Source: a candidate division WOR-1 bacterium RIFOXYB2_FULL_45_9
GTDB taxonomy: Bacteria > Margulisbacteria > WOR-1 > O2-12-FULL-45-9 > XYB2-FULL-48-7
Assembly: GCA_001771575.1 (NCBI GenBank)
Contig: MEUD01000001.1
Coordinates: 124,001-188,000 of the forward strand
Direction: 5' to 3'
DNA length: 64,000 bases
Within the stretch, counting starts at the first letter, position 1; every line of letters begins with the position of its first letter. This document shows positions 25,254 through 31,005 of this stretch, one piece after another. A model generated the notes under the pieces. It saw only the letters and a program-made list of their open reading frames with translations, was not told the DNA's origin and did no database searches. A program made the position numbers and the translations under genes.

Positions 25254-25278
25254 GAAGAATAGGGGATTAGGGAAATAG

Positions 25279-26745
25279 GTGAATAGGGATAAGTTGATAT
25301 TTGAGAAGTCAGTGCCCGGTGCGGTCGGGTTTTCCCTGCCTGATCTTGATGTTCCGCCGGAAGAGATTGAAAAGCTTGTCCCCCCCGAGCTGATCAGATC
25401 CGATCTTAACCTGCCGGAGCTTTCCGAACTTGACGTTGTTCGCCATTTTACCAGGTTGTCGCAAAAAAATGTTTCCGTTGACACGCATTTTTATCCTCTC
25501 GGTTCCTGCACCATGAAATACAATCCCAAGGTGAACGAAGAAGCGGCCAACCTTCCCGGATTTACCGGGATTCACCCCTTGCAGGACGAAAAAGAGATCC
25601 AGGGGATCTTGGCCCTGCTTTATGATTTTGAGCGTTCCCTTTGTTCGATATTCGGCTACGAAGCGTTCACCCTTCAACCGGCGGCCGGCGCCCACGGTGA
25701 ATTGACCGCTTTGATGATGATCAAAGAATATCATCGGAGCAGGGGGAAAGGGGCTCGGAGCAAGGTCATAATTCCTGATTCTTCGCACGGAACTAATCCG
25801 GCGTCGGTGGCGATCGTCGGTTATGAACCGGTTGTCATTAGATCGAACGGACGGGGAAATATCGACGTGGCGGCTCTCAAGAGCGCGCTGGGGACCGATA
25901 CCGCTGCGCTGATGCTGACCAATCCCAACACCCTGGGCTTATTTGACGAGCATATCCTTGAGGTCGCGGAGCTGGTCCATAAGGCGGGAGGGCTTTTATA
26001 TTACGATGGCGCCAATGCCAACGCTAATCTCGGGATCTGCCGTCCGGCCGATCTTGGTTTTGACGTCGCCCACTTCAATCTTCATAAGACTTTTTCCACT
26101 CCTCATGGCGGCGGCGGGCCGGGGGCCGGACCGGTAGGGGTCAATAAAAAATTGGTACCGTTCCTTCCCACCCCCCGGATCGTAAAAAAGGGAAAGAAAT
26201 ATAAATTCTCTTCCAACGTTTCCCCAAAATCGATTGGCCGCGTCCATCCTTTCCACGGCAATATTAACGTGATCATTAAGGCTTACGCGTATATCCGCTC
26301 TTTGGGGGGAGAAGGATTAAAAAAAGCTTCGGAGCAGGCGGTTGAGAACGCTAATTACATGATGAACAGGCTCAAGGAGTATTACTGGCTCCCATATGAT
26401 CGCCCCTGCCAGCACGAATTTGTCCTGTCGGCCAAGTGGCAGAAAGAAAAGTATGGGGTAAAAGCTTTGGATATTGCCAAACGATTGATTGACTATGGGT
26501 TTCATCCGCCGACGATATATTTTCCGCTGATCGTCGAGGAATCGCTGATGATCGAACCGACCGAGTCGGAGTCGCGCGCGACCATTGATGAATTTTGCGA
26601 TGCCATGATCTCCATTGCCAAAGAATGCGAGGTTTCCCCTGAGCTGGTCAAGAATGCCCCTCAAACGACTCCGGTGAAAAGGCTTGATGAAGCAAAGGCG
26701 GCAAGGGAGCTTAATTTGCGCTGGTTACAAGAGCCCCTTAAGTAG
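25279..26745 (+). CDS. gcvPB: Glycine dehydrogenase (decarboxylating) subunit 2
   Basis: 488 residues, PLP-dependent P2 subunit of the split glycine cleavage P-protein. The PLP lysine lies in [16 protein letters not shown], and [11 protein letters not shown] is diagnostic for this subunit. The start is GTG at 25279. The preceding 25 nt are a purine-rich AGGG-type run that may act as a Shine-Dalgarno. gcvPA, gcvT and gcvH are not adjacent. A lipoate ligase 1 kb downstream could supply lipoyl-GcvH. Overlaps the convergent transglutaminase gene by 21 nt. Confidence 0.92.
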
Positions 26746-27754: not shown

Positions 27755-28474
27755 ATGAGTAAATGGCGATTGATCGCGGCTCCAGAAATGACCGGGGCCG
27801 ATAATATGGCGTATGATCTCAAGCTTTTTTCTGATTTTGAGAAAATGCCAGGCCAGCCGGTCCTGCGGATCTACTCCTGGCGGCCCAAAGCTATTTCCCT
27901 TGGCTATGCCCAGAAAGTCGACCGCGAGATCGATTTGGAGATGGCAAAAGCGCTTGGTTGGGATGTCGTGGTCAGGCCGACCGGCGGGGGGATCGTCTTT
28001 CATAATGAAGCGGAAGTGACTTATTCGTTAGTGATTGGGAAAGATGACCCTTTGTTGCCAAAGGGATTGATTCCAGCTTATAGGAAGATTTCCACGGCTT
28101 TGATTGCCGGGCTGGCTATTCTAGGGATTAAATCAGAAATATCCCCCTCTCCATCTATGATGGAGAGGGGTGCCGAGCGCAGGCGAGGCGGGGTGAGGGG
28201 GCTTTGTTTTAATTATCCAGCCGAATATGAAGTAGTAGCGGCAGGGAAAAAGATCGTCGGGAGCGCGCAGAAAAGAGGAAAAACAGCCCTTCTCCAGCAG
28301 GGGTCGATCTTTATTCGCCAAACACCACCGGGCGATCTCTCTTGTTTGAAGGCGTCGGTCGCGGAAGTGAATGCGGTCAGCGTTGAAGATTTGCTTGGGC
28401 GGGAAGTTTCATTCAATGAAGTTGCCGCCGCGTTGGAATCTGGGTTCCGGAAGGTTTTTAACTCTCTTTTTTAG
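27755..28474 (+). CDS. Lipoate-protein ligase A family protein with an in-frame palindromic insertion
   Basis: 239 residues from the ATG at 27755 (promoter-supported). BPL/LplA-fold core: RPTGGGIVFH (74-83) binds the lipoyl-adenylate and GKKIVGSAQKR (about 164-174) holds the catalytic lysine. It would attach lipoate or octanoate to GcvH or a dehydrogenase E2. Residues about 130-149 (rich in Ser/Pro, Arg and Gly) are encoded by a palindromic element that interrupts the usual short loop between GIKSE and CFNYPAEYEV without breaking the frame. Overlaps the convergent DUF502 gene by 17 nt. Confidence 0.87.
   Translation: MSKWRLIAAPEMTGADNMAYDLKLFSDFEKMPGQPVLRIYSWRPKAISLGYAQKVDREIDLEMAKALGWDVVVRPTGGGIVFHNEAEVTYSLVIGKDDPLLPKGLIPAYRKISTALIAGLAILGIKSEISPSPSMMERGAERRRGGVRGLCFNYPAEYEVVAAGKKIVGSAQKRGKTALLQQGSIFIRQTPPGDLSCLKASVAEVNAVSVEDLLGREVSFNEVAAALESGFRKVFNSLF
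28143..28201 (+). repeat. Palindromic interspersed repeat inserted in frame in the lipoate ligase
   Basis: Perfect 12-bp inverted arms, CCCCTCTCCATC (28144-28155) and GATGGAGAGGGG (28159-28170), with a 3-nt loop. A G-rich tail follows (TGCCGAGCGCAGGCGAGG and so on, ending GTGAGGGGG). The composition differs from the surrounding gene. I recognise the pattern as a common intergenic palindrome of many environmental genomes. The net insertion must be a multiple of 3. No second full copy seen in this window. Confidence 0.75.
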
Positions 28475-29392: not shown

Positions 29393-30934
29393 TTAGTCGA
29401 GCCCCTTGGCCTGGTTTTGTGCCTGGAGAAAGATCATCCGATTGATCGCCGCGACGTATGCTTTGGCGCTGGCTAAAATGATATCGGTCGAGGCGCCGTG
29501 CCCCACATAGACCTGTTCGCCTTCTTTTAACCTGACGGTCACTTCCCCCTGGGCATCAGTCCCGCCGGTAATCGCCTGGATGATGTAATCGACCAGGTTT
29601 GGTTTAAGTCTGGTTATTTTATCGATCGCCCGGTAGACCGCGTCGACCGGACCGGCCCCTTCGGCGGTCTCAACAGTCGTGCTGTTCTTATATTGAAGCT
29701 TGACCTTGGCGCTTGGTTTCCGCTCCGTGCCGGAGCAGACCTCGATCAACTCGATCTTGAAAGTTTCAGGGACAATGTTGATCTCTTCGGAGACGATCGC
29801 CGCGAGGTCCGCTTCTCCGACCTCTTTCTTCATGTCGGCCAATTGTTTGAAGCTGGTAAAGGCTTTTTCCAGGTTATCTTCGGTCAGATTATAGCCCATT
29901 TCTTTTAATTTGTCGGCGAAAGCGTTTCGGCCGGAGTGTTTTCCCAGGACCAAGCGGCTTTCGGTCAGTCCGATGTCTTCGGGGAGCATGATCTCGTAGG
30001 TTAGTTTGTCCCGGAGCATACCCGCCTGGTGGATCCCGGATTCATGGGCGAAAGCGTTGGCGCCGACGATCGCTTTATTGGGCTGGACCAGAAGACCGGT
30101 CAAATTGCTGACCATCCGGCTGGTCCGATAGATCTCTTTGGTGTTGATGCCGGTCGAGCAGTCAAAATAATCGCGCCGCGTTTTTAGGGTCATGACGACC
30201 TCTTCGAGCGAAGCGTTACCCGCCCGCTCGCCAATTCCGTTGATCGTGCACTCCACCTGATTGGCCCCGGCTTTGATCGCCGCCAAGGAATTGACCGCCG
30301 CCATTCCCAGGTCATTATGGCAATGGACCGAGATGGTGACATTATTCGTCTTGATCTGCGGGACATTGGCAATAACGTTCTCGATCAATTTGCCGAATTC
30401 CCAGGGGGTATTGTAGCCGACAGTGTCGGGGATGTTGATGGTCGAAGCGCCCGCCTCAATGGCGGCGGCGACGACTTTATAAAGGAACGCCGGTTCCGAG
30501 CGGCCGGCATCCTCGGCTGAAAATTCAATATCATTACAGAGCGATTTCGCGTAGGCGACCATTTCTTTGGTAGTCGCCAGGACCTGAACTGGTGTCATGC
30601 GAAGTTTCTTTTCCATATGGATGGGAGAGGTCGCCAGAAAAACGTGGATCCGCGGCCGATCAGAATATTTGATCGCTTCCCAGGCGCTTTTTATGTCCTC
30701 TTTTTTGGCCCGGGCAAGACTGCAAATGATCGGGCCTTTGATCTGTTGGGCGATCTGCTTGATCGAGTCAAAATCGCCGGGGGAGGCGATGGCAAAACCG
30801 GCTTCAATGGCGTCAACTCCAAGCTTGGCGAGCTGGCGGGCGATATCAAGTTTTTCTTCCGGATTAAGAGAGGCTCCGGGGCATTGTTCTCCGTCGCGCA
30901 AGGTGGTATCGAAAATCTTGATCTGCCTGGTCAT
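29393..30934 (-). CDS. leuA: 2-isopropylmalate synthase
   Basis: 513 residues. [28 protein letters not shown] and NGIGERAGNA are the catalytic and metal-site motifs. The C-terminal leucine-binding regulatory domain (about 385-505) is complete. It condenses acetyl-CoA with 2-oxoisovalerate, the first step to leucine. Shine-Dalgarno AGGAGC lies upstream, preceded by a perfect 30-bp palindrome. Other leu genes are not adjacent. Confidence 0.93.
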   Translation of the reverse strand: MTRQIKIFDTTLRDGEQCPGASLNPEEKLDIARQLAKLGVDAIEAGFAIASPGDFDSIKQIAQQIKGPIICSLARAKKEDIKSAWEAIKYSDRPRIHVFLATSPIHMEKKLRMTPVQVLATTKEMVAYAKSLCNDIEFSAEDAGRSEPAFLYKVVAAAIEAGASTINIPDTVGYNTPWEFGKLIENVIANVPQIKTNNVTISVHCHNDLGMAAVNSLAAIKAGANQVECTINGIGERAGNASLEEVVMTLKTRRDYFDCSTGINTKEIYRTSRMVSNLTGLLVQPNKAIVGANAFAHESGIHQAGMLRDKLTYEIMLPEDIGLTESRLVLGKHSGRNAFADKLKEMGYNLTEDNLEKAFTSFKQLADMKKEVGEADLAAIVSEEINIVPETFKIELIEVCSGTERKPSAKVKLQYKNSTTVETAEGAGPVDAVYRAIDKITRLKPNLVDYIIQAITGGTDAQGEVTVRLKEGEQVYVGHGASTDIILASAKAYVAAINRMIFLQAQNQAKGLD

Positions 30935-30951
30935 TTTACATCAGCTCCTAG

Positions 30952-30981
30952 TTTAACCGTGCAATTAATTGCACGGTTAAA
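30952..30981. promoter_or_regulatory. Perfect 30-bp palindrome in the leuA leader
   Basis: Arms TTTAACCGTGCAATT and its exact complement meet with no spacer, 17 bp upstream of the leuA start and between its -10 and Shine-Dalgarno. Candidate operator for a dimeric regulator, or a 5' hairpin in the leuA mRNA. There is no U-run on the leuA side, so it is not an obvious terminator. Confidence 0.65.
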
Positions 30982-31005
30982 AATGATCATTTTGTTGAAT
31001 ATTTA

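What the first reader, a model, noticed from the sequence alone, without database searches (positions are those of the whole stretch)
28143..28201. Palindromic repeat inserted in frame in lipoate ligase
A 12-bp-arm hairpin element with a G-rich tail adds about 20 residues between GIKSE and CFNYPAEYE, a loop between the two active-site halves. Frame and catalytic motifs are kept. Repeats of this sequence type are normally intergenic. A protein-coding palindrome recalls Rickettsia palindromic elements. It may be a tolerated surface loop or may change activity.
Basis: partly seen in the sequence, partly recalled or inferred. Interest (0 to 1): 0.65.

Follow-up and report, generated by a model that had tools for sequence, protein, structure and literature searches.

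The report
Genome repeats coded inside enzyme loops
In a little-known bacterium related to cyanobacteria, a short palindromic repeat that normally lies between genes sits, in reading frame, in a flexible loop of a lipoate-attaching enzyme, and related species repeatedly carry their own different repeats in that same loop and in loops of other core enzymes.

Summary
A perfect 12-bp-arm hairpin with a G-rich tail (28143-28201) lies in frame between I129 and C151 of an intact LplA/LipM-fold gene (27755-28474) under purifying selection. It has the architecture of the G/C-rich intrastrand triplex motif (TM) of Holder et al. 2015, always intergenic in E. coli. The genome has 27 TM-type copies: 9 internal to genes (LipM, RsmH, MiaB, YgiQ, HemW twice, a giant gene three times), 11 at gene ends, 7 intergenic. 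The same-genus relative lacks the element. Across 25 class-level homologues this loop is a hot spot: 13 hold a significant hairpin or 7-nt array, usually of a family dispersed in that species' own genome. RsmH, NadB and HemW behave alike. Best explanation: dispersed non-autonomous repeats land widely and survive in genes only where stop-free, frame-neutral and in a disordered loop. This works like Rickettsia palindromic elements but is not one. Hairpin copy number does not follow Y1-transposase presence, so the mover is unknown. The enzyme is probably a LipM octanoyltransferase; the insert abuts its likely catalytic cysteine.

The parts
27755..28474 (+). LipM/LplA-fold gene (239 aa) that hosts the element
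   Evidence: Pfam LplA-B_cat 7.3e-31; 15-sequence alignment with all invariant columns kept; dN/dS about 0.11 vs same-genus homologue
28143..28201 (+). In-frame triplex-type (TM) palindromic element, codes about 19-20 residues (PSPSMMERGAERRRGGVRG)
   Evidence: other copies in genome; absent from same-genus G001
28144..28155 (+). Left arm of hairpin; 28144-28152 is the pyrimidine strand of the triplex motif
28159..28170 (+). Right arm of hairpin; 28162-28170 is the purine strand
28190..28198 (+).
   Evidence: background 22 of 3000 random 110-nt genome windows
28205..28207 (+). Codon of invariant Cys151, two residues after the end of the element; likely catalytic Cys of a LipM-type enzyme (inferred)
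   Evidence: Invariant in A1
25279..26745 (+). gcvPB, glycine dehydrogenase subunit 2: neighbouring gene of the lipoyl-dependent glycine cleavage system
   Evidence: NF003346 737.7 bits, over cut-off

Best explanation
The element is one copy of a dispersed, non-autonomous, triplex-type palindromic repeat that entered a surface loop of a LipM-like enzyme in frame and is tolerated there. Shown: it belongs to a multi-copy genome family; the same-genus relative lacks it; the ORF and all invariant residues are kept under purifying selection; the loop is predicted disordered; the same loop, and loops of RsmH, NadB and HemW, repeatedly hold the lineage's own dispersed repeats (triplex palindromes or 7-nt arrays). 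Inferred: repeats are copied into many sites by an unknown process, most in-gene copies are purged, and those left are stop-free, net frame-neutral and in flexible, length-tolerant loops. The encoded peptide is then an inert linker that drifts or is overwritten by later repeats.
For: 27 TM-type places in the genome, 9 internal to genes, 11 at gene ends, 7 intergenic; internal copies open in 4-6 of 6 frames. Same 9-triad architecture in rsmH, miaB, ygiQ, hemW, rdgB, truB, ligA copies. G001 loop of 12 residues without repeat. 13 of 25 LipM loops significant for hairpin or 7-nt array, about 0.5 expected. Loop repeats recur elsewhere in the same species' genome: G003 array about a dozen places, G021 over twenty, G014 over fifteen. 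RsmH loop: TM in G000 and independently G014, arrays in others. Loop pLDDT<50; dN/dS 0.11; extra residues of RsmH against PDB 1wg8 exactly at the element.
Against: No exact empty site was found: the G001 loop has diverged and is 9, not 19-20, residues shorter, so replacement rather than clean insertion is possible. No target duplication or mover was identified. Translation and activity of the insert-bearing enzyme are not shown.
Confidence: 0.8

Rival explanations
1. REP/REPIN element moved by a RAYT-type Y1 transposase: the hairpin is a substrate of the genome's Y1_Tnp protein, which inserts it through a single-stranded intermediate.
For: The genome has one Y1_Tnp gene and two double-hairpin TM copies lie within 3 kb upstream of it.
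Against: G028, G014 and G006 have 48, 40 and 35 CCCTCTCC hairpins but no Y1_Tnp match, while G027 has six matches and 3 hairpins. The Y1_Tnp here is closely surrounded by another hairpin family (GGAAACC-GCGACGATATTGTCGC-GGTTTCC).
Confidence: 0.1
2. The insert is kept because it works: its stable mRNA hairpin or its DNA triplex slows translation or replication at the loop before the active-site cysteine, or its peptide tunes the enzyme.
For: Arms are perfect; the RNA hairpin is stable, z -2.7; the site is adjacent to the invariant Cys; the loop is repeatedly filled with repeats in relatives.
Against: Loop content differs between genera (palindromes, 7-nt arrays, or none in G001, G020, G027, G029) without a shared sequence or structure; arrays form no hairpin. 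Perfect arms also fit a recent arrival.
Confidence: 0.07
3. A fast-evolving low-complexity loop generated local repeats by slippage; no mobile element is involved.
For: 7-nt arrays can grow by polymerase slippage; heptamers are the commonest unit of long simple repeats in many genomes (work of Mrazek et al. as cited in PMC4679880).
Against: Slippage does not make the same 60-nt palindrome at 27 unlinked places, nor place each genome's own dispersed family in the loop.
Confidence: 0.05
4. Assembly artefact or decaying pseudogene.
For: Genomes of this group are assembled from environmental DNA, and repeats can be mis-assembled.
Against: Single-contig genome; intact frame and invariant residues; dN/dS about 0.11; independent equivalents in other assemblies.
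Confidence: 0.01

Closest known systems
G/C-rich intrastrand triplex motif (TM, TMECO), Holder et al. 2015, PMC4666352
   Same: Pyrimidine arm, purine arm and mirrored G-rich third strand, nearly the same sequence (CCCTCTCC..GGAGAGGG..GGGTGAGGG); many copies per genome; also frequent in Cyanobacteria.
   Different: In E. coli always intergenic; here in frame inside conserved enzymes.
Rickettsia palindromic elements (RPE) and Wolbachia equivalents (Ogata et al., reviewed in PMC2229807)
   Same: Dispersed palindromic repeat, in genes and between them, in frame in conserved enzymes, apparently tolerated.
   Different: RPEs are 105-146 bp; this is about 59 bp with TM architecture, in another phylum. 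The same enzyme loop is re-used by different repeats in different species.
REP elements / REPINs with RAYT transposases (PMC3116915, PMC3733652, PMC12306157)
   Same: Short multi-copy palindromes, about half of the copies at gene ends or between genes.
   Different: Not extragenic; copy number does not follow Y1_Tnp presence.
Intergenic heptamer direct repeats such as TAACTGA in Beggiatoaceae and Cyanobacteria (PMC4679880)
   Same: 7-nt tandem arrays dispersed in the genome.
   Different: Here arrays of other units lie in frame in enzyme loops; TAACTGA arrays are mostly upstream of start codons.
Enterobacterial RU/ERIC elements fused to reading frames (Delihas, PMC2759123, PMC2229807)
   Same: Small mobile repeats carrying open frames, found fused to genes.
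   Different: 103-168 bp MITEs; not reported to recur in one enzyme loop across species.

Membership tests
Intrastrand triplex motif (TM) | Pyrimidine arm, complementary purine arm and third strand mirroring the purine arm | tested here: met
   9 of 9 triads, no mismatch
Intrastrand triplex motif (TM) | Loops of 1-6 nt (search definition of Holder et al.) | tested here: not met
   LipM copy: loop 9, linker 19; rsmH and hemW copies meet it with 3 and 3 (criterion). Hence 'TM-type variant'.
Intrastrand triplex motif (TM) | Folds into a triplex | not testable with these tools
   Needs CD or NMR
Rickettsia palindromic element | In frame inside conserved protein genes, also present between genes | tested here: met
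   9 internal, 7 intergenic; rsmH, miaB, hemW
Rickettsia palindromic element | 105-146 bp element with terminal inverted repeats | tested here: not met
   About 59 bp; size of RPE from PMC2229807
Rickettsia palindromic element | Sequence similarity to RPE families | not tested
   RPE sequences not compared
REP element | Extragenic location | tested here: not met
   Inside an ORF under purifying selection
REP element | Association with a RAYT (Y1_Tnp) gene | tested here: not met
   Hairpin-rich genomes without Y1_Tnp
MITE | Terminal inverted repeats at the ends and a target-site duplication | tested here: inconclusive
   No duplication is visible in the flanks, but no exact empty site exists to prove it
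LipM octanoyltransferase | Invariant cysteine in the active-site loop | tested here: met
   Cys151 invariant in 15 sequences; that it is the catalytic one is inferred from knowledge of LipM
LipM octanoyltransferase | Lipoyl synthase LipA in the genome | tested here: met
   TIGR00510 363.9 bits, over cut-off
LipM octanoyltransferase | Groups with characterised LipM rather than LplA in a tree; octanoyl transfer activity | not tested
   No tree made; sequence search finds LplA structures first, fold search finds LplA, LipB and LipL-like folds

The most novel reading that the evidence does not exclude
In this phylum certain enzyme loops (LipM before the cysteine, RsmH after GGGGH, the NadB and HemW linkers) are recurrent landing pads in which dispersed repeats are written in register and overwrite one another, sometimes without changing loop length, by a templated copying process not yet described. 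Genome-wide non-coding repeats would be a continuous source of new loop sequence in core enzymes.
Probability: 0.2. Interest if true: 0.8.

Novelty: new variant of a known kind. Interest (0 to 1): 0.62.

Why it matters
Protein-coding palindromes are known mainly from Rickettsia and Wolbachia. Here an unrelated lineage next to Cyanobacteria shows the same phenomenon with a repeat class reported as strictly intergenic in E. coli, in core enzymes, and repeatedly at the same loop in different species. That gives natural replicates for asking how repeats move, which protein sites tolerate foreign peptide, and whether non-coding repeats feed loop evolution. It also warns annotators that peptides such as PSPSGRGG, PLSQRERV or QQLTTNN in such genomes are repeat DNA rather than conserved features.

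Tried and rejected
RAYT mobilisation was tested by comparing Y1_Tnp counts with hairpin copy number over 22 genomes and disfavoured. A k-mer repeat census was swamped by GATC-rich codon usage; self-BLAST worked. In the RsmH loop scan the motif search failed on 12 of 27 genomes, so the figure 7 of 15 covers readable ones only. MiaB was checked for a clean insertion against PDB 7mjz, but linker lengths are similar, so it is better described as replacement. The PolA array looks length-preserving only from general knowledge of PolA; it was not aligned here. The whole genome was not available as a file and was read as stretches; gene calls are from an own codon-usage caller, so 'internal' or 'gene end' may be off for single cases. 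Pseudogene and artefact were considered and rejected (see rivals).

Full report
What is there. The window is bases 124001-188000 of a single-contig 1.67-Mb genome. Its nearest named relatives are Saganbacteria/WOR-1 and Margulisiibacteriota, sibling groups of Cyanobacteria (PMC6349859). Bases 28143-28201 hold a perfect 12-bp-arm hairpin with a 3-nt loop, a 19-nt spacer and a G-rich tail; folding and stem statistics exceed chance. It lies inside ORF 27755-28474, which hits the LplA/LipB catalytic domain.

The gene is alive. All residues invariant over 15 homologues are kept, the frame is open, and dN/dS against the same-genus homologue outside the loop is about 0.11. AlphaFold gives a confident LplA-like fold (mean pLDDT 85; best PDB match 2art, TM-score 0.78) in which only residues 136-150, within the insert, form a segment below pLDDT 50. 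Directly after the loop comes invariant Cys151. With lipA in the genome and gcvPB next door, a LipM-type octanoyltransferase is the better reading than lipoate ligase. That is inferred from knowledge of the family, not shown.

What the element is. The purine arm GGAGAGGGG is mirrored by the tail GGGGTGAGG in 9 of 9 class-II triads. This is the architecture of the G/C-rich intrastrand triplex motif that Holder et al. (PMC4666352) describe in E. coli as CCCTCTCCC..GGGAGAGGG..GGGTGAGGG, always intergenic there. The copies in rsmH and hemW fit the E. coli layout closely.

Genome-wide. Counting TM-type elements (including the CTCCCCC variant) gives 27 places: 9 internal to genes, 11 at gene ends, 7 intergenic (lists). 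Internal copies code loop peptides in RsmH (TLTPVPSPKGRGV), MiaB (RPSPLCGEGEPRVRFSGRVVGE), YgiQ (SPSPFPMERGGTSKASDGVR), HemW (TPHPPLPKGEGA and TPSSFPPLAKGENVERSETRGG) and a 13-kb gene. RsmH shows the extra residues against PDB 1wg8 exactly at the element. A second repeat class, 7-nt arrays such as (CTAACAA)n, is also in frame in PolA, ArgC, NadB and ThiL.

Relatives. In the same genus (G001) the LipM loop has 12 residues and no element; here it has 21. So the element most likely arrived after the split and displaced part of the old loop. In the rest of the class the same loop holds other repeats: TM palindromes (G014, G021), other palindromes (G010, G023, G012) and 7-nt arrays (G003, G011, G026, G009, G004, G006, G017, G028). 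Against same-length windows of coding-rich DNA, 13 of 25 loops are significant at p<0.01 (8 arrays, 5 hairpins), where about 0.5 is expected. A search with the loops together shows that loop repeats recur in the same species' genome: the G003 array at about a dozen other places, the G021 palindrome at over twenty, the G014 palindrome at over fifteen, and smaller numbers for others.

Other loops. RsmH behaves the same way: TM in G000 and, independently, in G014; arrays in others; 7 of 15 readable loops at p<0.01. G014 has a TM in the NadB linker where G000 has a 7-nt array. HemW carries different inserts in G000, G003, G004 and G006. ArgC keeps nearly the same loop length while its content differs between genera, which suggests overwriting rather than pure insertion.

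Mechanism. Shown: multi-copy dispersed repeats, in-frame presence, difference from a sister, disorder of the loop, purifying selection on the enzyme, recurrence. Inferred: repeats are copied widely, selection removes those that break frames or structured parts, and those remaining sit in tolerant loops. TM sequences are poor in stop codons (in-gene copies are open in 4-6 of six frames), which helps. What moves them is unknown: hairpin-rich genomes G028, G014 and G006 lack any Y1_Tnp match, and the genome's own Y1_Tnp is surrounded by a different hairpin family. Triplex motifs are linked to genome instability in E. coli (PMC4666352), so template copying during repair is a plausible but untested route.

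Comparison and verdict. It works like Rickettsia palindromic elements (in frame, tolerated, dispersed; PMC2229807) but differs in size and architecture, so it is not filed as one. It is a TM-type repeat behaving as a protein-coding palindrome: a new variant of a known kind, notable for recurrence at the same enzyme loops across a whole class. No earlier report for this group was found in the papers held, though most subscription journals are not in that library.

Noticed in passing
Genome G000:C1:899929-902622, 1367030-1368211, 1557659-1559248, 1585278-1586201: 7-nt (CTAACAA-type) arrays in frame in PolA, ArgC, NadB and ThiL, coding peptides such as QQLTTNN; the ArgC array is shared with the same-genus genome G001.
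   Followed up: partly
Genome G000:C1:234100-235300: A single Y1_Tnp (RAYT-like) gene surrounded by its own hairpin family GGAAACC-GCGACGATATTGTCGC-GGTTTCC, 16 places in the genome, some inside genes.
   Followed up: partly
Genome G000:C1:231948-232009 and 233986-234048: Double-hairpin TM copies form the C-terminal tails of TruB and LigA and overlap or lie next to their stop codons.
   Followed up: no
window 30932-30992: Copy of another palindrome family (TTAACCGCGCAATTAATTGCGCGGTTAA type), 19 places in the genome, mostly intergenic, here at the 5' end of leuA.
   Followed up: no
Genome G000:C1:801096-814322: A 13-kb gene holds three TM copies and one GGAAGCC hairpin in frame.
   Followed up: no
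L018 1242-1940, L019 5001-5699, L013 5001-5768: In these LipM homologues a second loop, just before the RPTGGG motif, also holds repeat-like inserts.
   Followed up: partly
window 25258-25289: Two copies of a 16-nt direct repeat (AATAGGGGAATAGGGA) across the start of gcvPB.
   Followed up: no
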